Origin: Nocardioides panacis
Lineage (GTDB): Bacteria > Actinomycetota > Actinomycetes > Propionibacteriales > Nocardioidaceae
Direction of reading: 5' to 3'
Length of the DNA stretch: 64,000 nt
NCBI RefSeq assembly: GCF_019039255.1
Contig: NZ_CP077062.1
Coordinates: 2,418,001 to 2,482,000, forward strand
A program made the translations under genes and the position numbers. Position 1 is the stretch's first letter; every line of letters starts with the position of its first letter. Below are positions 7,390-39,380 of the stretch, one piece after another. The notes below the pieces were generated by a model. That model did not search any database. It saw only the letters and a program-made list of their open reading frames with translations, and was not told the DNA's origin.

Positions 7390-7884
7390 TCAGCTCTGGT
7401 TGAAGAAGCCGCCGGCGTCCGCGATGCGCTGCTTGTCCTCGGCGGCGACCGAGACGTTCGGCGGCGAGAGCAGGAACACCTTGTTGGTGACCCGCTCGAT
7501 GGTGCCCCGGACGGCGAACACGAGCCCGGCGGCGAAGTCGACGAGACGCTTGGCGTCCATGTCGTCCATCTCGGAGAGGTTCATGATCACCGGGACGCCC
7601 TCGCGGAAGTTCTCCCCGATGCTGCGCGCCTCGTTGTAGGTGCGCGGGTGCAGCGTGGTGATCCGGGACAGCTCGGCCACGGTCGCCTGCGGGGCGACGT
7701 GCGGCTGGGCGGCCTGCGGGCGGCGACGCTCGGAGATGTTCGCGACGGGGGCCGGGCGGGCCGGCTCCTCGGTGGCACCACGCTGGGGACGCTCGTCGTA
7801 CTCGTCGTAGTACTCGTCGTCGTAGCGCTCGGTGTCCTCGAGCAGGCCAAGGTAGACACCCATCTTGCGCATCGCGCTGCCCAT
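7390..7884 (-). CDS. sepF: SepF, FtsZ membrane anchor
   Basis: Binds the FtsZ C-terminal peptide and tethers Z-ring filaments to the membrane; in actinobacteria, which lack FtsA, it is the main anchor. 164 aa. The N-terminal amphipathic helix [11 protein letters not shown] is followed by an acidic Tyr-rich linker ([14 protein letters not shown]) and the globular SepF domain from about residue 65 ([40 protein letters not shown]). Ends in GGFFNQS. A GGAGG site lies 8-9 nt before ATG 7884. Confidence 0.95.
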
Positions 7885-7945
7885 GACTTCTGCCTCCGGT
7901 ACATCTGCGGGCCCCCGGATGGGGCACGCTGCTGCGATCTCGACC

Positions 7946-8650
7946 CTACCGTCTGGCGGGCCGGCTACCGAGCACCGCGCTGCCTATCCGCACGTGTGTC
8001 GCGCCGGATTCGACGGCAGCCTCGAGGTCGCCGCTCATCCCGGCCGAGATCCAGGTCGCGGACGGCTCGATGCTGCGCACCGAGGCCGCGATCTCGGCGA
8101 GTTTCGCGAACGCAGGCAGGGGATCCTCCCCCAGCGGCGCCACCGCCATCACTCCGCGGAGCCGGAGGCCCTCGGTGGCGGCCACCTGCTCGGCGAGCCG
8201 CTCGACGTCGACGGGAGGTACTCCGGCGCGGCCGCCGTCCCCGGGGTCTGTGTCCAGGCTCACCTGGACCAGGACGTCCACGACGTGGTCACGCTGGTGG
8301 GCGCCCGAGGACAGCCCGCGGAGCAGCTTGGCGCGGTCGACGGACTCGACCACGTCGGCGTAGGCCGCGACGGCCGCCGCCTTGTTGCTCTGCAGGCCGC
8401 CGATGAAGTGCCAGGTCAGGCCCAGGTCGGCGCACTCGGCCGCCTTCGCCTCGGCCTCCTGGTGCCGGTTCTCCCCCACGTGGCGCACCCCGAGGTCGGC
8501 GAGCAGGCGGACGTCGGAGGCCGGGAAGAACTTGGTGACCACCGTCAGCGTCACCTCCTCGGGCGAGCGGCCGGCCCGCCCGGCCGCGTCGGCGATCCGG
8601 GCGCGGACCTGCGCGAGGTTCCCGGCGAGCTCGTCGCGTCGCCCGCTCAC
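7946..8650 (-). CDS. YggS/PLPBP-family pyridoxal-phosphate homeostasis protein
   Basis: Single-domain PLP-binding protein of the alanine-racemase N-terminal fold with no known catalysis; keeps PLP and amino/keto-acid pools balanced. 234 aa. The PLP lysine is in [12 protein letters not shown] (about residue 40), followed by [22 protein letters not shown] and the phosphate-binding C-terminal region [22 protein letters not shown]. The GTG start at 8650 overlaps the pgeF stop as GTGA, so the two are translated together. Standard dcw-tail position next to sepF. Confidence 0.93.
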
Positions 8651-9468
8651 CCGGCGTCCCCGCAGCTGCGTGCCGGGAGCCAGCGCTTCCACGGCCGCAC
8701 CCGGACCAGGCCGGCGAGCCGGCCGGAGCGCCGGCCCTGGCGGCGGTAGGAGAACAGGTCCTCGTCCTCGAGGGTGCAGCGCGACGCGTCGAGGACCTCG
8801 CACCCGGCGGCGAGCAGCTGGGCCCGCACCCCGGCGCCGATGTCCAGCGCGGGGGTGCCCCACGAGGTCTCCGCGTAGGACTCGGGCACCAGCGCGCTGA
8901 CCTCGGCCCGCAGCCGGTCCGGCACCTCGTAGCAGGCACCGCACACGTGCGGGCCGACCCAGGCCGTGACCGGCCCGGCGCCCAGCGACGCCATCGCGGC
9001 CACGGCGGCCGGCACCACCCCGGCGGCCAGGCCCGGCCGGCCGGCGTGCACCGCCGCCACGATCCCGCGCACCGGGTCGGCCAGCAGCACCGGGACGCAG
9101 TCGGCGACCCGGACCATCAGCACCGTGCCCCGCTCGGCGGTGACCAGCCCGTCCCCGGTCGGCGGCTCGTCGCCGGCGCCGACGACGTGCACGTCGGCCC
9201 CGTGCACCTGCCGCATGCGTACGACGGGCGGGGTCGGCGCCCCCGGCTGCACGCCGGTGAACGCCCGGACCGCGAGGTCGACGTTGCGACGTACGGACGC
9301 GCGCTCGGCCGCCGCGTCGGCGGCTTCGGCGTCATCGGCGTCGTCGGCGTCGTGCGCGGGGTTGGGCTCGGCGAGGTTCAGGGACGCGAACGGACCGCCA
9401 CTGGTTCCTCCGTGGCGGTCCGTGAACGCGATCTCGACCGGGCCGAGCGTGTCCTGGAAGGCGAACAC
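8647..9468 (-). CDS. pgeF: peptidoglycan editing factor / laccase-domain protein
   Basis: Member of the YfiH/LACC1 family, implicated in removing wrongly incorporated L-Ser from UDP-MurNAc precursors and in purine nucleoside metabolism. 273 aa. The three conserved metal-site segments are visible: RMRQVHGADV, VRVADCVPVLLADP and AAVHAGRPGLAAGV, plus CGACYEVP and RRQGRRSGRLAG. The common HAGWRG is HAGRPG here. An Asp/Ala insert (AHDADDADDAEAADAAAER, about residues 38-56) is coded by repeated gtcggcgtc triplets. AGGAG lies 5 nt before the ATG. Lies 21 nt after ftsZ. Confidence 0.92.
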   Translation of the reverse strand: MFAFQDTLGPVEIAFTDRHGGTSGGPFASLNLAEPNPAHDADDADDAEAADAAAERASVRRNVDLAVRAFTGVQPGAPTPPVVRMRQVHGADVHVVGAGDEPPTGDGLVTAERGTVLMVRVADCVPVLLADPVRGIVAAVHAGRPGLAAGVVPAAVAAMASLGAGPVTAWVGPHVCGACYEVPDRLRAEVSALVPESYAETSWGTPALDIGAGVRAQLLAAGCEVLDASRCTLEDEDLFSYRRQGRRSGRLAGLVRVRPWKRWLPARSCGDAG

Positions 9469-9489
9469 TCGAGCTCCTGTCCGTGGTGC

Positions 9490-10794
9490 TTACTTGAGGA
9501 AGTCGGGCACGTCCAGCTCGTCGTCGTCGAACTGGACCTGCCGCGGCTGGCGCGGCGCGGCGGGAGCCGGCTGCGCCGGGGCCGCGGACTGCTGGCCCGA
9601 CTGGTTGTACTGCGAGTATCCCGACTGTCCGGCGCGGGTGCTCGCCGGCTCGTGGTCCTGCTGGCGCGCCGCGGCCGGCGAACCGGCCGTGGGACGACCG
9701 GCCGGGGCCGTGGAGCCGACCGGCGAGGCGGTGCGCTCGCGCGAGCCGGACGACGGCGCCGGCAGGGCGGCGGCGCGGGTGTCGGCCTGCGACTGCTGGG
9801 CAGCCGGCTCGCGACGGAGCACCGTGCCGTTGTCCCGCTTCTTCGGCATGCCGCCGTCGAAGCCGGCCGCGATCACGGTGACCCGGACCTCGTCGCCGAG
9901 CGCGTCGTCGATGACCGCGCCGAAGATGATGTTCGCCTCGGCGTGCGCCGCCTGCGACACCAGGGCCGCGGCCTCGTTGATCTCGAACAGACCGAGGTCG
10001 GAGCCGCCGGCGATCGAGAGCAGCACGCCGTGCGCCCCGTCGATGGAGGCCTCGAGCAGCGGGCTGGACACGGCCATCTCGGCAGCGGCGACCGCGCGGT
10101 CCTCGCCGCGCGCCGAGCCGATGCCCATCAGGGCCGAGCCGGCGTTGGACATCACGGACTTGACGTCGGCGAAGTCGAGGTTGATCAGGCCGGGGGTGGT
10201 GATCAGGTCGGTGATGCCCGAGACGCCCTGCAGCAGCACCTGGTCGGCCTGCTTGAAGGCGTCGAGGATCGACACGTTGCGGTCGCTGATCGACAGCAGC
10301 CGGTCGTTCGGGATGACGATGAGGGTGTCGACCTCCTCGCGGAGCTGCGCGATCCCCTCCTCGGCCTGGTTGGCGCGGCGCCGGCCCTCGAACGAGAACG
10401 GCCGGGTCACGACGCCGATGGTCAGGGCGCCCAGGGACCGGGCGATGCGCGCGACGACCGGCGCGCCACCGGTGCCGGTGCCACCGCCCTCGCCCGCGGT
10501 CACGAAGACCATGTCGGCGCCCTTGAGCACCTCCTCGATCTCCTCGGCGTGGTCGTCGGCGGCCTTGCCACCGACCTCGGGGTTCGCGCCCGCTCCGAGT
10601 CCGCGGGTGAGCTCGCGGCCGATGTCGAGCTTGACGTCGGCGTCGCTCATCAGCAGGGCTTGGGCATCGGTGTTGATGGCGATGAACTCGACGCCCTTGA
10701 GGCCGACCTCGATCATCCGGTTGACGGCGTTTACTCCACCTCCACCAATACCCACGACCTTGATGACGGCCAGGTAGTTCTGCGGTGCTGCCAC
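9490..10794 (-). CDS. ftsZ: cell-division GTPase FtsZ
   Basis: Tubulin-like GTPase that forms the Z ring. 434 aa. The GTG start at 10794 ([18 protein letters not shown]) is chosen because it fits the conserved N-terminus and has GAGAGG upstream. GTP-binding motifs GGGGVNAV and [15 protein letters not shown] and the synergy-loop segment [11 protein letters not shown] are intact. The core ends near residue 315, then a long Ala/Gln/Pro-rich linker leads to the C-terminal peptide [12 protein letters not shown] that binds SepF and FtsW. Separated from ftsQ by 278 nt with its own regulatory site, so it can be expressed apart from the mur genes. Confidence 0.98.
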
Positions 10795-31584: not shown

Positions 31585-32310
31585 CTAGGCAGAGTCGAGG
31601 GCGACGAGCTTCTCCCGCAACGTCGTGGTTGCCCGGCGGTGCACCTGGCTGACCCGCGACTCGGTCACCCCGAGGACCTGACCGATCTCGGCCAGCGTGA
31701 GGCCCTCGAAGTAGTAGAGCGCGATGATCACCTGGTCGCGCTCGGCGAGCTGGTCGACGACCCGCATCAGCGAGGCGTTCACGTCGCCCTGCTCGACCTG
31801 GTGGTCGGCGGCCGAGGAGAGCTCGTCGGCGAGGTCGAAGTCGTCGAGGTTGGCGTGGTTGGAGTTGGCCTGCCGGCTGAGGTCGCGCAGCTGCTGGACC
31901 GGGATGCCGACCTCGCGGGCGACCTCGACGTCCTCGGGCACCCGGCCGAGCCGCTCCTCGAGGGAGACCTGGGCGCGCTGGACGGTGCGGAGCTTGTCGC
32001 GGACCGAGCGCGGCACGAAGTCCATCGAGCGCATCCCGTCGATGATCGCGCCCCGGATCCGGGGCACCGCGAAGGTCTGGAACGACAGCCCGCGGGCCGG
32101 CTCGAACCGCTCGATGGCGTCCATCAGGCCGAGCACGCCGTCCGACACCAGGTCGTCGGGGTCGACCGAGTCGGGCATCCGGGTGCGCAGCCGGCCGGCG
32201 ACGTACTTCACCAGCGGGGCGTACTGCAGGACCAGCCGGTTGCGCAGGCTGGCTTCGCCGGTGGCCCGGAACTCGTTCCAGATCTGCTCGAGGTCGTCGC
32301 TGGGGCTCAT
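31585..32310 (-). CDS. FliA/WhiG-family RNA polymerase sigma factor
   Basis: Group 3 sigma factor, 241 aa. Region 2 (LVLQYAPLVKYVAGRL; DLVSDGVLGLMDAIERFEP; FQTFAVPRIRGAIIDGMR), region 3 (DFVPRSVRDKLRTVQRAQ) and region 4 (AERDQVIIALYYFEGLTLAEIGQVLGVTESRVSQVHRRA) are complete. It resembles Streptomyces WhiG and flagellar FliA equally at this level. ATG 32310 overlaps the upstream anti-sigma stop (ATGA), and AGGAG lies 7 nt upstream. No flagellar genes are in the window, so target genes are unknown. Confidence 0.93.
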   Translation of the reverse strand: MSPSDDLEQIWNEFRATGEASLRNRLVLQYAPLVKYVAGRLRTRMPDSVDPDDLVSDGVLGLMDAIERFEPARGLSFQTFAVPRIRGAIIDGMRSMDFVPRSVRDKLRTVQRAQVSLEERLGRVPEDVEVAREVGIPVQQLRDLSRQANSNHANLDDFDLADELSSAADHQVEQGDVNASLMRVVDQLAERDQVIIALYYFEGLTLAEIGQVLGVTESRVSQVHRRATTTLREKLVALDSA

Positions 32311-32855
32311 GCCATCGCTCCTGAACGTCCGCCGCCGGTGTGCGGGGCGGTGAAGGCCACCAGGGCGCTGACCGGGTTGTCGCGGTAGCGCGCGATCAGC
32401 TCGGAGGTGGCCTCGTCGAGCCGCTCGTGCAGGGCACGCCGGTAGTCGGTGAGCTGCTCCTCGGCCTGCCGCAACCGGGCGATCGCCGCGGAGACCGCGG
32501 CAGTGTCGTTGGGGTCGAGCTCGGTGACCCACATGTCGGCGAGGATCGGCAGCTCGGGCAGGTCGTCGGCGGCCCGCACGCTGACCAGCGCGGTGCGGGT
32601 GCGCCCGGTGCCGGTGTCCCCCAGGACCCGGATCAGCTCGTCGAGCCGCAGCGGCCGCTCGTGGTGGGCCTCGGCCTCGAGCACGTCGATGCGGGCGTGC
32701 ACCAGACGACGCCAGTAGGAGACCTTCTCCTCCTCCTCCGCCACCCGGCGTCGGTAGAGGCGCAGGTCCTCGAGCGTCAGCTCCGCCCAGGCGTCGGGAC
32801 CAGGAGTGGCGTCGGCCAGTGCCAGACCACCCTCGTCTTCTCCTAGCGGGCTCAT
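32307..32855 (-). CDS. RsiG-like anti-sigma factor with two c-di-GMP-binding-type motifs
   Basis: 182 aa, mostly helical. Two copies of the pattern E-x3-[ST]-x2-R-x3-H-x3-D are seen at residues 42-57 (E42, S46, R49, H53, D57) and 132-147 (E132, T136, R139, H143, D147). Streptomyces RsiG, which binds c-di-GMP and then sequesters WhiG, carries E-x3-S-x2-R-x3-Q-x3-D on two antiparallel helices; here His replaces Gln in both. The gene overlaps the sigma gene by ATGA, as expected for a cognate pair. Function is inferred from motif and context. Confidence 0.82.
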   Translation of the reverse strand: MSPLGEDEGGLALADATPGPDAWAELTLEDLRLYRRRVAEEEEKVSYWRRLVHARIDVLEAEAHHERPLRLDELIRVLGDTGTGRTRTALVSVRAADDLPELPILADMWVTELDPNDTAAVSAAIARLRQAEEQLTDYRRALHERLDEATSELIARYRDNPVSALVAFTAPHTGGGRSGAMA

Positions 32856-33281: not shown

Positions 33282-34484
33282 CTAGGCCCGGTCGCTGCCG
33301 AGCAGGGTGGCCGGCCGCAACGCCGCCGCCCCGAACCTCCTGGTGGCGCGGTCCACGGCGCCGTCGGCCTCGGGCCAGCCGCGCTCCCGCTCCCCGAGCA
33401 CCAGCTGGCGCTGCACCGTGGACCGGGGCACCAAGCCCTCGACCCGCACCCCCACCAGCCGGATCCGGGCGCGCTGCAGCCCGAGGCCGGTGAACAGGTC
33501 GGTCGCGGTGCGGTAGATCTCCCGCGTCACGTCCGTCGCCTCCCCCAGCGTCTTGGACCGGGTGAGGGTGGTGAAGTCGGCGAACCGCACCTTCACGGTG
33601 ACCGTGCGGCCGGCCACCTGGGCCGCCCGCATCCGGGTGGCGACCTTCGCGGAGAGCCGGAGCAGCTCGCGCAGCACCACCTCCCGGTCGTCGGTGTCCC
33701 GCCCGAAGGTCTCGTCGGCGCCCATGCTCTTGTCCGGCTCGTCGCCGCCCCGCCGCGCGGTGACCACCCGCCGGTCCTCGCCCCAGGCCAGCTGGTGCAG
33801 GGAGGTGGCCAGGTGCACCCCGACCGCCCGCTGCAACGTGGTCAGCGGGGTGTGCGCGATGTCGCCGACCGTGCGCAGGCCGAGCCGGTGCAGCAGGTCA
33901 CTGGTCTTCTCCCCCACGCCCCACAGCTCACCGACGTCGAGCGGGTGCAGGAAGGTGGTCACCGCCGCGGGCGGCACGACCACGATCCCGTCGGGCTTGG
34001 CGCGCCGGGAGGCGAGCTTGGCGACCGCGACGGTGGCCGCCATCCCGACCGAGCAGGTGATGCCCTGCTCGTCGTAGATCCGGGCCCGCAGCAGCGAGGC
34101 GATGGCGTACGGTGACCCGAGCCGGCGCACGGAGCCGGACACGTCGAGGAACGCCTCGTCCAGCGAGACCACCTCGACCAGCGGGGTGACCTGCCGGAAG
34201 GTCTCCATCACCGAGCGGGACACCACGTCGAAGGTCTCGAAGCTCGGCGAGAGGACCACGGCGTTCGGGCAGAGCCGCCGGGCCCGGGTCATCGGCATCG
34301 CGGACCGGACGCCGTAGGTGCGGGCCCGGTAGTTGGCCGAGAGCACCACCCCGCGGTGCCCGCCGCCCACCACGACCGGGACGTCCTGGAGGTCGGGGCG
34401 GTCCCGGACGGCGACGGAGGCGTAGAACGCGTCCATGTCGACGTGCAGGACCGGGCACTCCCAGGACGCCTCCTCCGGGGTCAC
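33282..34484 (-). CDS. dinB: Y-family DNA polymerase IV
   Basis: Error-prone translesion polymerase, 400 aa. The GTG start at 34484 (MTPEEASWECPVLHVDMD) is chosen as the nearest start before the conserved HVDMDAFYASVAVRDRPDL. Catalytic acidic residues in HVDMDAFYAS and VSLDEAFLDVSG; palm motif GIVVVPPAAV; HhH segment ELWGVGEKTSDLLHRLGLRTVGD; little-finger domain to the end. Last gene of the LexA-box cassette; 25 nt after the methyltransferase. No beta-clamp motif was confidently placed at the C-terminus. Confidence 0.94.
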   Translation of the reverse strand: MTPEEASWECPVLHVDMDAFYASVAVRDRPDLQDVPVVVGGGHRGVVLSANYRARTYGVRSAMPMTRARRLCPNAVVLSPSFETFDVVSRSVMETFRQVTPLVEVVSLDEAFLDVSGSVRRLGSPYAIASLLRARIYDEQGITCSVGMAATVAVAKLASRRAKPDGIVVVPPAAVTTFLHPLDVGELWGVGEKTSDLLHRLGLRTVGDIAHTPLTTLQRAVGVHLATSLHQLAWGEDRRVVTARRGGDEPDKSMGADETFGRDTDDREVVLRELLRLSAKVATRMRAAQVAGRTVTVKVRFADFTTLTRSKTLGEATDVTREIYRTATDLFTGLGLQRARIRLVGVRVEGLVPRSTVQRQLVLGERERGWPEADGAVDRATRRFGAAALRPATLLGSDRA

Positions 34485-34509
34485 CGGAGCCGCCCGAGGA
34501 CGGGGGGCT

Positions 34510-35290
34510 TCAGCCGGAGGTGCCGCGCCGGGTCGCCAGGGTGTGGATCTGGGTGGCCAGGGCGAGGTACTCGGGCCGGGTCGCCACCGCCCGCTCGAGC
34601 TCGACGAGAGCCTGCGCGGCTCCCGGCTCGAGGTCGACCAGCGAGCTGGGCACCAGGTCGACGAAGACCCGGACCGCGTGCATGGCCTCGGTGTCGAAGC
34701 CGGCGTCGTCGAGCACCGCGGTGATCTCGTCGGCGGTGAACCGGCGGTTGGTGGCGCCGCCGGTGGCCGCCCCGGCGGGCCCGGACTCCAGCAGCGACCG
34801 GGCCGCGGTGAAGTGGCCGGCCATCGCCCGGGTGACCACGGCGGCGTGCCGCTGGTTGACGAGCAGGCTGAGCGTCCCGCCGGGACGCAGGGACGCGGCG
34901 AGCGCGGCCAGCGCGGCTGCCGGGTCCTCGACGATCTCCAGGACGCCGTGGCAGAGCACCACGTCGGTCCCGCCGTCCGGGACCAGGCCGGGCAGCGTGC
35001 CCAGGTCCCCCCTGGCGTCCGCTGACCCGGTCGGCCACGCCGCTCTCGTCGGCGCGACGCGCGAGGATGGCCAGCGCGTCGGGGCTGGGGTCGACGACCA
35101 CCACCTGGTGGCCGAGCTCGGCGACCCGGACCGCGAGGCCACCGGTGCCTCCCCCGATGTCGAGGACGGCGGCCGGCCGGTCGGCGTAGCGGGTCTCGAG
35201 CACGTCGCGCAGGGCGTGCCACACGACCGCCGTACGGGCGGCGCTGCGTCGCTGGAGGCTGCTCTGGCCCGGTCGCGGGTCGGCTGACAT
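34510..35290 (-). CDS. SAM-dependent methyltransferase (frame broken at a C6 run)
   Basis: Class I methyltransferase of about 259 aa when one base is removed from the C6 run at 35007-35012 (minus-strand GGGGGG). SAM motif VLDIGGGTGGLAVRVAEL, motif II VVVVDPSPDALAIL, then after the break GDLGTLPGLVPDGGTDVVLCHGVLEIVEDP and SLRPGGTLSLLVN. Without the extra base the junction reads RVSGRQGDLGTLPG, a normal family sequence. TAGGGT lies 7 nt before ATG 35290, so it can also be made from a leaderless transcript independent of dnaE2. Substrate unknown. Confidence 0.85.
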
Positions 35291-35326
35291 GGCGCCCACC
35301 CTAGTGCCCGCCGGGCGGCGCTCGTC

Positions 35327-38300
35327 TCAGGCACCGGAGCTGCCCGGGGACGAGTGCCACAGCTTGCGGGGAGCCGACTTGGTGTCCTCGCCCGGCGGCT
35401 TGATGTCCGCGTAGGGCGACATCGTGGAAGCCGCTGGAGTGCACCAGCACCCGGCGCCGTCCCATCCCGCCCGCGGCGGGACCGCCCTCCCCGGCTCCGG
35501 GGACCTCCCCGGTGGTGTCGGGAGCGTTGCCCGGGGTCGGCCGGGCGACCACCGGGCGGGTCGACCGGCTCTCGGCCGCGCCCTGCACGGCCCCTTCGCC
35601 CGCGGAGCCGAACCCCTCGGGCACCGCCGCCATCAGGGCCCGGACGGCGTCGGGTCCGCCGTGCTGCCAGGCCTCGTGCAGGACCGGCAGCTCCCAGCAG
35701 CCGGTGGCCCGCAGCGAGACGCCCCGCCGGCCGGTCCGCCGCAGCACGCCGCGCACGACCAGCAGCCAGGAGTGGAACACCGTGGCGGCGTAGGGCCCCT
35801 GGACGTCCTCGAAGAACGTCGCGTCCACCGGGCCGGTCGAGTCGTCGAGGGTCAGGAAGACCACCCGGCGCCCGGACCGGATCGGCGGGGTCTGGGTGGC
35901 CACCTTGACCCCGGCGACCAGCAGCTCGGACCGGCTGCGGCGGGTGAGCAGGTCCGCCGAGCGGGTCACCCCGAGCGCGTCGAGGAACGGGTCGTAGGCC
36001 TGCACGACGTGCCGGCTCACGTCGAGACCCAGGATCTCCAGCTCGGCGCGCACCCGCTCGGAGGCGTTCATCTCCGGCAGGCCGCTGACCTCGCCGTCGA
36101 CCGGGGTGTCCCCCAGGTCGAGGGCCAGCTGGACCGAGCTCACCGGCGTGGCCTTCCGGGTGGCGCGGGACTGGCGCTGCGACTGCTCCCAGACCCCGGC
36201 CTGCTGCCGGCTGGGGTGCAGGCCGGAGGGCGGGTCCCAGGGCTGGTCGCCCGGACGGCCCCGGGCGCCGGCGGGGCGGGCCGGCTGGGCGTCCCGCTGC
36301 CGGTCCCGGACCAGCCCGTCGGAGCTGTTGCCCGCCGCCGCGTCCTCGGCCCGGGCGACCGCCGCCACCCGTCCGCCCGGCGCCACGCCGCGGCTCGCGA
36401 GCCCGCGTCCCCGTCCCGCGGCGGCCCGGTCGACGGCGCGGCCGTGCCGGTCGAGGTCGGCCACCTGGAGCAGCAGGTCGCGGCGGGTGACGCTGCCCCG
36501 GCGGCGTACGCCTCCGTCCGCGGCTGCGTCCCCGATCCGGTAGACGCTGTCGAACCCGCCGGCGAGCACCAGCCTCTCCACCACCGGGCGGGAGACCCGG
36601 GCGCGCTGCCAGAAGTCCGTGAGCGACTGGTAGGGCCGGGCCGCGACGACCCGGTCCACCTCGGACTCGGAGATCCCCTTGACCTCCGACAGCGCGAGCC
36701 GGATGCCGTAGCCGTGCCCGCTCGTGCCGAACTCCGTGGGCTGCCCGGTGGGCTGCCCGTCGTCCTCGACCCGCTCGACCACGAACGTCTTCTCCGAGGC
36801 GTTCACGTCGAGGCCGAGCACCGCGATCCCGAACTGCCGGGCGTCGTCGAGGATCAACCGCTTGGGGTACATCCCCGGGTCGTGGGTGAGCACCCCGGAC
36901 AGGAAGTGCGCCGGGTAGTGCGCCTTGAGCCAGGCGGACTGGTAGGTCGGCAGCGCGAAGGCCGCCGCGTGCGCCTTGCAGAACCCGAAGGACGCGAACG
37001 CCGCGAGGATCTTCCAGATCTCCTCGACGACCCGCCGGGAGTAGCCGTGCGCCATCGCCCGCGGGAAGAACCACACCTTGGTCTCCGCCATGCCCTCGAC
37101 GTCACCGAGCGCGCGCCGGGCCTCGTCGGCCTGCTCGTAGCTGCACCGGGCGAACCGGGCGATCATCTCGATGACCTGCTCGTGGAAGACCACCACGCCA
37201 TGGGTCGGGCCGAGGATCGGGCGCAGGTCGTCGTGGAGGTAGCTCGGCATCCCCCAGCCCTGCTTGGCGTGCAGGTAGGGGGTGATCATGTCGCTCTTCA
37301 CCGGCCCGGGCCGGAACAGCGAGATGTCGGTGATGATGTCCTCGAAGGAGTCGATGCCGGACTTGCCGACGAGCTCGCGCTGGCCCGGCGACTCGATCTG
37401 GAAGCAGCCGAGGGTCTTGGACTGGGAGATCATCCGGAACGTCCGGTCGTCGTCGAACGGCACCTGCTGCTCGTCGTCGAGGTCGAGCCGGACCCCCTCG
37501 ACCCGCTCGATCTCGTCGACGGCGTGCGCCATCGAGGACTGCATCCGGATGCCGAGCACGTCGAGCTTGAGCAGGCCGAGGTCCTCCACGTCGTCCTTGT
37601 CGAACTGGCTCATCGGGAAGCCGGCGTACGACGCCTCGACCGGCGTGCGGTCGAGCAGCGTCGCGTCGGAGAGCAGCACCCCGCACGGGTGCACGGCGAT
37701 GTGCCGGGGCAGCCCGTCGAGCCGCTCGACGAGCCGGAACAGCAGGTCGAGCCGCTGCTCGCCGAGCCCGGAGGCCCGCAGCTCGGGCAGGTCGCGCAGC
37801 GCGACCCGGGCGTCGCGGGCCCGGATGTGCGGGAACGCCTTGGCGATCGCGTCGATCTCCCCGACCGGCATGCCGAGCGCGGCGCCGACGTCGCGGACCG
37901 CGTGCCGGACCCGGTAGGTGTCCATCATCGACACGCACACGCAGCGCTCCCCGCCGTAGCGGTCGAGCACGGCCTCGTAGACCTCGAGCCGGCGGGCGGA
38001 CTCCACGTCGACGTCGATGTCGGGGAGCGCCTGCCGCAGCGGGGACAGGAACCGCTCCATCAGCAGGTCGTGCCGCAGCGGGTCGACGCCGGAGACCCCG
38101 AGCAGGTAGTTGACCAGGCTGCCCGCGCCGGACCCGCGCGCCGCGCAGCGCACGCCCATGTCCTTGATCAGGTCGGTGACGTCGGCGACGGTGAGGAAGT
38201 AGGGCGCGTAGCCGAGCGTGCCGATGGTCCGCAGCTCGTCGTCGAGCCGCTTCCAGATCCGCTGCCGGGGGGCGCCGCCGTAGCGCCGCCCGACGGCGGA

Positions 38301-39380
38301 CTCGCAGCGGGCCCGCAGCACCCCGTCGGCGGTGCGGTGCCGCACGGCGTCCTCGCCGGTGACCACCTGGAACTCCGGGAAGTGCACCTCCCCCAGGCCG
38401 AGGTCGTGGCGCGGGTCGAGGGCGCAGCGGTCGCCGACGACCCGGCTGCGGGCCAGCAGCCGCCGGGCCTCGCGGGCGCTGTCGGAGCCGAGCCCGGCGA
38501 ACCGGCAGACCTCCTCGGCCACCTCGGCCATCTGCTTGCCGGACTTCAGGAAGCCCTCGGCGTTGGCCCGGAAGCCGGTCGCGTCGAGGTTCCTGAGGTC
38601 GGCGGAGCCGAGCGGCACCAGCCGGCGGGCCGCGTCGAGCACGTCGACGGTCGGGGCGTCGAGCCGGTCGGCGTAGCGCACCGCGTTGGTCAGCACCATC
38701 CCCAGCCCGGCCGACCGGGCGGCACCGGCCATCCGGGCGGCGTGCGGCGAGGACCCGGGCCCCGAGCCGGACAGCCGGTGGGAGACCAGCTCGACGACCA
38801 GGTCGGCCCGGTCGACGACCTCGAGCCAGGGCGCGAGGGCGGCCTGCGCGAGGTCGTCGCGGCGCAGCGTCACCGCCCGGCCCAGCTCGGAGCCGGGGCC
38901 GAGCAGCACCACCACGTCGCGGCCGGCGACGTGCTCGGCCACCAGGTCCAGGGTGCTGACCGGGTCGCCCCGCTCCCCCGCCAGGTGGGTCGCCGAGACC
39001 AGCCGGCACAGCGCCGCCCAGCCCCGCTTGCTGCCGGCCAGGAACGTCGCCCGCGGCAGCCGCCGGTCGCGGAACGCTCCCCCGCGGGCGGGCGACCGGC
39101 CCTGGCGGACGTCCACCGGCCGGCCGCGCGGGTCCGCGGGTGCCCCCGACCAGGGGTGCAGCGGCGCGACCGCGAGGTCCACGCCGAGCACCGGGCGCAC
39201 CCCGCCCTGCAGGCAGGCCTTGGCGAACCGGACCGCGCCGTAGGTGCCGTCGCGGTCGGTGAGGGCGAGGGTGTCCATCTCCTGCTCGACGGCACGCTCG
39301 ACCAGGACGTGCGGGTGGGAGGCGCCGTACTGCAGGGAGTAGCCGGACGCCACGTGCAGGTGCACGAACGGGTCAGGCAA
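35327..39380 (-). CDS. dnaE2: error-prone DNA polymerase III alpha DnaE2 (frame broken near the 3' end)
   Basis: Damage-tolerance replicase, about 1350 aa after removing one extra base in CGTGGAAG at 35423-35430. The corrected C-terminus reads SGFTMSPYADIKPPGED...PRKLWHSSPGSSGA, the typical DnaE2 ending. N-terminal PHP domain (HLHVASGYSLQYGASHP; LALTDRDGTYG, where the usual His of TDHDG is Arg). Polymerase core RGSGAGSLVNYLLG, ALPDIDVDVES and LLKLDVLGI with the catalytic Asp residues, FFRPGP-type LFRPGPVKSDMI, HhH, and OB domain. It overlaps the upstream HEPN gene by 8 nt. Driven by the LexA box at 40440. Confidence 0.92.

What the first reader, a model, noticed from the sequence alone, without database searches (positions are those of the whole stretch)
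31585..32855. A sigma-WhiG / RsiG pair with both c-di-GMP motifs, but His in place of Gln
The gene overlapping the FliA/WhiG-type sigma gene codes for a helical 182-aa protein with two copies of E-x3-[ST]-x2-R-x3-H-x3-D (residues 42-57 and 132-147). Streptomyces RsiG uses E-x3-S-x2-R-x3-Q-x3-D on two helices to hold a c-di-GMP dimer and sequester WhiG. The same change, Gln to His, occurs at both motifs, so the site may have co-evolved to a different affinity or ligand. It would connect c-di-GMP to a non-sporulation sigma regulon.
Basis: partly seen in the sequence, partly recalled or inferred. Interest (0 to 1): 0.62.

Follow-up and report, generated by a model that had tools for sequence, protein, structure and literature searches.

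The report
c-di-GMP-armed RsiG anti-sigma and WhiG

Summary
ORF 32307-32855(-) is a twin-motif RsiG (Pfam RsiG, 69 bits), overlapping by ATGA the WhiG gene 31585-32310(-). AlphaFold gives the two long motif helices, and Foldseek's top four PDB hits are all S. venezuelae RsiG.

The Gln-to-His change is not new biology. His in motif 1 is published as frequent, and single-motif RsiG of Conexibacter woesei, whose homodimer presents His at both sites, binds c-di-GMP (1.7 uM with WhiG) and not c-di-AMP (PMC8325347). Among 16 Propionibacteriales RsiGs drawn without regard to His, motif 1 is His in 15 and motif 2 is His in 12 or Phe in 4. So a ring side chain there is a family trait, not a mark of a new ligand.

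New here is the regulon evidence. In Nocardioides, rsiG lies between pilT and pilB of a type IV pilus cluster. A WhiG promoter, TCAAG-N15-GCCGAT(G/C)A, precedes pil genes and GGDEF/EAL genes. In the window's genus the pair sits beside the dcw cluster, and a similar promoter precedes an orthologous 8-TM GGDEF-EAL gene in all three genomes. Flagella have their own FliA, lacking WhiG's c-di-GMP contacts. New member of a known kind; binding and regulon untested.

The parts
32307..32855 (-). rsiG: twin-motif anti-sigma factor RsiG, 182 aa, ATG start with GGAGAG upstream
   Evidence: PF22802 69.2 bits; PDB 6pfj/6pfv and 7lq2-4 by sequence; AlphaFold helices 28-64 and 118-159; Foldseek top four hits all S. 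venezuelae RsiG
32685..32732 (-). c-di-GMP motif 1, residues 42-57 EEKVSYWRRLVHARID (E42 S46 R49 H53 D57)
   Evidence: sequence; aligned with Gln of S. venezuelae RsiG; His in 15 of 16 unbiased relatives
32415..32462 (-). c-di-GMP motif 2, residues 132-147 EEQLTDYRRALHERLD (E132 T136 R139 H143 D147)
   Evidence: sequence; His 12/16, Phe 4/16 in relatives; Gln in Streptomyces
31585..32310 (-). whiG: FliA/WhiG-type sigma factor, 241 aa
   Evidence: TIGR02479 232 bits; 6pfv WhiG E 3e-62; groups with S. venezuelae WhiG, apart from flagellar FliA, support 100/100
32191..32208 (-). KYVAGR of sigma region 2: K35, G39, R40, the counterparts of WhiG K57/G61/R62 that touch c-di-GMP
   Evidence: alignment; role from PMC8325347; present in all WhiG rows and absent from FliA rows
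32307..32310 (-). ATGA overlap of the rsiG stop and whiG start (probable translational coupling)
   Evidence: sequence

Best explanation
The pair is an RsiG-(c-di-GMP)2-WhiG switch. When c-di-GMP is high, the two motif helices of RsiG form an antiparallel coiled coil that holds a c-di-GMP dimer, and RsiG clamps domains 2 and 4 of WhiG so that it cannot join RNA polymerase; when c-di-GMP falls, WhiG is freed. The His side chains (H53, H143) take the place of Gln in stacking on the guanines, with the same ligand. Translation from overlapping genes probably keeps the two proteins in balance. In Nocardioides the freed sigma drives type IV pilus genes and GGDEF/EAL genes from TCAAG-N15-GCCGAT(G/C)A promoters; in the window's own genus the only conserved target found is an 8-TM GGDEF-EAL protein, so WhiG probably feeds back on c-di-GMP turnover. 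Shown here: homology, motif conservation, predicted fold, co-occurrence, gene linkage, the promoter motif. Inferred: c-di-GMP binding, WhiG sequestration, the regulon, the direction of feedback.
For: Family and fold. c-di-GMP contact residues in both partners. His/His protein shown to bind c-di-GMP specifically: (PMC8325347). Every one of 16 RsiG-bearing genomes (hits over the family cut-off) among 294 Propionibacteriales carries the top-scoring WhiG, and only one RsiG-less genome does (Fisher 1.7e-25). RsiG goes with PilM in 85 genomes of the Nocardioides-type genus g3 (11 of 13 against 2 of 72; Fisher 2.7e-10), and rsiG sits between pilT and pilB. Promoter: 23 hits at spacing 16 against 0 in the reversed control in loci picked for RsiG, upstream of pilM, pilT, pilB, minor pilins, pilD, PAS-GGDEF and GGDEF-EAL genes. 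A weight matrix built only from Nocardioides T4P-type loci scores 19.9, 24.0 and 17.9 upstream of the orthologous GGDEF-EAL gene in the window genome, G194 and G110; 5 Mb of Markov sequence, one strand, gives none at 17.9 or above. About 30 GGDEF proteins in the genome show that c-di-GMP signalling is present.
Against: No binding or expression data for this pair. The His-bearing C. woesei RsiG binds about twofold more weakly than the Gln version of Rubrobacter, so a modest effect on affinity is possible. The genome's own type IV pilus cluster (164.6-173.4 kb, without pilM) has no clear WhiG promoter, and neither does rsiG-whiG itself. The GGDEF-EAL target in the window genome is frameshifted at a run of seven G, a pseudogene or an assembly error. 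The conserved promoter rests on three genomes, and coding hits of similar score exist in the genome. The sigma misses NCBI's strict WhiG equivalog cut-off (262 against 343 bits).
Confidence: 0.82

Rival explanations
1. The double His gives the site a new affinity or a different cyclic dinucleotide, co-evolved with a new role.
For: His/His is common in this lineage and differs from Streptomyces Gln/Gln; motif 2 His is not in the published consensus.
Against: C. woesei His/His homodimer binds c-di-GMP and not c-di-AMP; the guanine-reading Arg and Asp are invariant; Phe replaces His in motif 2 in 4 of 16, which suggests only a flat stacking side chain is needed.
Confidence: 0.06
2. The sigma factor acts as the flagellar sigma and RsiG links c-di-GMP to flagellar genes.
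For: FliA_WhiG family score; the genome has a full flagellar cluster.
Against: A second FliA lies inside the flagellar cluster at G000:C1:191.1-192.0 kb and groups with other such sigmas with 100/100 support, lacking the K/G/R contacts; the WhiG matrix finds nothing above 14 in the flagellar region. Promoter cross-talk between the two sigmas is not excluded.
Confidence: 0.06
3. The pair controls type IV pili in this genome too, as in Rubrobacter and probably Nocardioides.
For: Linkage in Nocardioides and the published Rubrobacter regulon; this genome has a small T4P cluster.
Against: No WhiG motif upstream of its pilin; the two sister genomes keep rsiG-whiG without PilM or a full-length PilB-type ATPase.
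Confidence: 0.2
4. The pair is a decaying relic with no regulon left.
For: Away from T4P genes; the one conserved target is frameshifted here.
Against: Both genes are intact, with motifs and sigma contacts conserved at about 68-76% RsiG identity across seven genomes of this group, and the promoter is retained in all three genomes looked at.
Confidence: 0.06

Closest known systems
RsiG-(c-di-GMP)2-WhiG of Streptomyces venezuelae (PDB 6pfj, 6pfv)
   Same: Twin-motif RsiG, motif spacing, WhiG partner with K/G/R contacts, predicted fold
   Different: His/His and Thr in motif 2 instead of Gln/Gln and Ser; genes adjacent and overlapping; no sporulation regulon indicated; about 25-28% identity to Streptomyces RsiGs
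(RsiG)2-(c-di-GMP)2-WhiG of Rubrobacter radiotolerans, and the His-bearing RsiG of Conexibacter woesei (PMC8325347)
   Same: Non-sporulating hosts; type IV pilus and GGDEF/EAL targets in Rubrobacter; His at both sites in the C. woesei homodimer
   Different: Those are single-motif homodimers; here one chain carries both motifs
RmdB of Streptomyces, an 8-TM GGDEF-EAL phosphodiesterase that binds WhiG and blocks RsiG (PMC13232838)
   Same: The conserved WhiG-promoter gene in this genus codes for an 8- to 9-TM GGDEF-EAL protein
   Different: Orthology and WhiG binding not tested; a WhiG promoter in front of rmdB was not looked for here

Membership tests
RsiG (PF22802) | Matches the curated family model above its cut-off | tested here: met
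   69.2 bits, cut-off 27, two stretches
RsiG (PF22802) | Two E(X)3S(X)2R(X)3[Q/H](X)3D motifs | tested here: met
   Both present; Thr for Ser and His in motif 2
RsiG (PF22802) | Two motif helices in an antiparallel coiled coil | tested here: met
   Model helices 28-64 and 118-159, pLDDT mostly above 90; Foldseek top four hits are RsiG, probability 1.00, TM about 0.5. A prediction, not a structure
RsiG (PF22802) | Binds c-di-GMP | not testable with these tools
   Contact residues conserved; a His/His relative binds
RsiG (PF22802) | Binds its WhiG in a c-di-GMP-dependent way | not testable with these tools
   Inferred from gene overlap and co-occurrence
WhiG sigma factor | FliA/WhiG subfamily model above cut-off | tested here: met
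   TIGR02479 232 bits, cut-off 189.6
WhiG sigma factor | NCBI WhiG equivalog cut-off (NF004935) | tested here: not met
   261.9 bits against 343; so 'WhiG-clade partner of RsiG' rather than the Streptomyces equivalog
WhiG sigma factor | Clade with Streptomyces WhiG and K57/G61/R62 contacts | tested here: met
   100/100 split from FliA; KYVAGR kept
Flagellar FliA | Lies in the flagellar cluster and in the FliA clade | tested here: not met
   The genome's FliA is a different gene at 191.1-192.0 kb

The most novel reading that the evidence does not exclude
In this genus the RsiG-WhiG switch has been cut loose from both sporulation and type IV pili and has become a self-contained c-di-GMP feedback device: WhiG, released when c-di-GMP is low, transcribes an RmdB-like 8-TM GGDEF-EAL protein that resets c-di-GMP and may itself compete with RsiG for WhiG.
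Probability: 0.25. Interest if true: 0.5.

Novelty: new member of a known kind. Interest (0 to 1): 0.33.

Why it matters
It places a c-di-GMP-armed sigma switch in Nocardioidaceae, which the main text of the 2021 survey does not name, gives a testable WhiG promoter for that family, and suggests that control of pili and of c-di-GMP enzymes, not sporulation, is the common use of the switch in unicellular actinobacteria. It also removes the Gln-to-His change as a sign of a new ligand.

Tried and rejected
Classical sigma-28 consensus TAAA-N14-17-GCCGATAA gave no exact hit in the genome, and with two mismatches 15 hits against 8 control hits; the two that looked plausible lie by a tRNA/terminator and by a convergent gene. 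One-mismatch hits of the Nocardioides promoter in the window genome are nearly all inside genes; looser hits upstream of a secreted protein (G000), a GNAT gene (G194) and others are not shared between species. No WhiG motif at the genome's pilin, in the flagellar cluster or upstream of rsiG. PF11104 missed this genome's pilus cluster, which seems to lack pilM; PF00437 found it. The first sigma tree had one spurious row and was rebuilt. The named-locus scan used a pattern that contains His at motif 1, so it cannot be used to count His there; the 16 Pfam-found loci were used instead.

Full report
What is there. On the minus strand, rsiG (32307-32855, 182 aa) is followed by whiG (31585-32310, 241 aa) with an ATGA overlap. 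The first protein scores 69.2 bits to Pfam RsiG (cut-off 27) and finds only RsiG chains in the PDB at significant E-values. The second is a FliA/WhiG-type sigma (232 bits) whose best PDB match is S. venezuelae WhiG. AlphaFold with a 48-row alignment gives mean pLDDT 79 with the two motif helices (28-64, 118-159) mostly above 90, and Foldseek returns the four S. venezuelae RsiG chains first with probability 1.00, everything after them being far weaker.

The Gln-to-His question. The 2021 survey of 135 RsiG homologues states that Gln of motif 1 is frequently His and that His can make the same guanine stacking. It also measured it: the single-motif RsiG of Conexibacter woesei carries His, and as a homodimer therefore offers His at both sites; it binds c-di-GMP at 25 uM alone and 1.7 uM with WhiG, against 12 and 0.9 uM for the Gln-bearing Rubrobacter protein, and neither binds c-di-AMP. 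In 16 RsiGs found in Propionibacteriales by Pfam, without regard to His, motif 1 has His in 15 and Glu in one (a protein with other motif positions also altered), and motif 2 has His in 12 and Phe in 4. Proteins in which only one motif was recognised in the phylum sample carry Gln in 10 and His in 6. The change is thus a lineage trait and the ligand is most likely unchanged; the motif Arg and Asp that read guanine are invariant in 48 sequences. What is slightly new is His (or Phe) in motif 2 of twin-motif proteins.

Which sigma. Of 294 genomes of the order, 16 have RsiG over the family cut-off; all 16 have a WhiG scoring 213 bits or more, and only one genome without RsiG does (Fisher 1.7e-25). 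The window genome has a second FliA-type sigma, at G000:C1:191.1-192.0 kb, in the middle of a flagellar cluster. A maximum-likelihood tree separates the two kinds with 100/100 support, S. venezuelae WhiG falling with the RsiG partners; every WhiG row has K-x3-G-R, the residues that touch c-di-GMP in the crystal structures, and the FliA rows lack them. So this is not the flagellar sigma.

What it may control. In the Nocardioides-type genus g3 (13 RsiG-bearing genomes of 85 in the sample) RsiG goes with PilM (11 of 13, against 2 of 72; p 2.7e-10). In most named loci rsiG lies between pilT and pilB of a type IV pilus cluster, with whiG 10-15 kb away in the same orientation where both were placed, or adjacent. 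Scanning those loci with the sigma-28 consensus gave 23 hits at spacing 16 against 0 in the reversed control, nearly all TCAAG-N15-GCCGAT(G/C)A. They precede pilM, pilT, a PilB with an MshEN domain, minor pilins, the prepilin peptidase, and PAS-GGDEF or GGDEF-EAL genes, confirmed by Pfam for representatives. This agrees with the Rubrobacter regulon published in 2021.

The pair lies between DUF3040 and dinB beside mraZ in the loci of this group, and PilM is absent. The window genome does carry a small type IV pilus cluster at about 164.6-173.4 kb, the two sisters no full-length PilB-type ATPase, and no WhiG motif was found at its pilin. A weight matrix made only from the Nocardioides sites scored the upstream region of one orthologous gene at 19.9, 24.0 and 17.9 in the three genomes; 5 Mb of Markov sequence (one strand) holds none at 17.9, although real coding DNA in the genome gives a few hits of that size. 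The gene codes for an 8- to 9-TM GGDEF-EAL protein with GGDEF and EAL signatures in the sisters. In the window genome it is frameshifted at a run of seven G inside the GGDEF motif. No other shared target was found. The layout resembles Streptomyces RmdB, which has 8 TM helices, GGDEF and EAL, and competes with RsiG for WhiG; orthology was not tested.

Conclusion. A new member of a known kind. The mechanism (c-di-GMP-armed sequestration of WhiG) is inferred from strong homology and a published His/His precedent; the regulon is inferred from promoters; neither is shown for this strain. Interest is modest: the His change is explained, while the pilus linkage, the family-specific promoter and the possible feedback gene are useful extensions of published work.

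Noticed in passing
G000:C1:4769452-4772100 (L306, L362): 8-TM GGDEF-EAL gene with a WhiG-type promoter is split by a frame change at a GGGGGGG run within the GGDEF motif; orthologues in two sister genomes are intact.
   Followed up: partly
G000:C1:9.5-15.5 kb and 4884-4889 kb (L322, L323): Very similar GGDEF-bearing segments near both ends of the single contig; either a duplication or unresolved overlap of a circular assembly.
   Followed up: partly
G041:C1:1179000-1198900 (L364): A Nocardioides-type genome with the RsiG-partner kind of WhiG, a pilin and a PilB fragment but no recognisable RsiG: possibly a natural loss of the anti-sigma factor.
   Followed up: partly
L287 (G110:C15) 7403-10689: In N. 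iriomotensis a PAS-GGDEF gene lies just upstream of rsiG, in a stretch between dinB and rsiG that the window genome lacks.
   Followed up: partly
L366, L093 (G225): rsiG-whiG next to two GGDEF-EAL genes with no pilus genes nearby, another pilus-free arrangement.
   Followed up: partly
L086 and L087 (Nocardioides mangrovi): Two contigs hold an apparently identical 20-kb rsiG/type IV pilus region with the same matches at the same positions; a duplication or an assembly artefact.
   Followed up: no
L081: An rsiG-whiG contig filed under an Acidobacteria MAG; the RsiG is of the Nocardioidaceae type, so probably misbinned.
   Followed up: no
L070:10520-12241: The PilB of the rsiG-linked pilus cluster has an MshEN domain, a known c-di-GMP-binding domain in other bacteria, so pilus control by c-di-GMP may act at two levels.
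   Followed up: no
window 33282-39380: dinB next to a dnaE2-type polymerase gene beside rsiG, near mraZ and the dcw cluster (17-25 kb): a conserved neighbourhood in this genus.
   Followed up: partly
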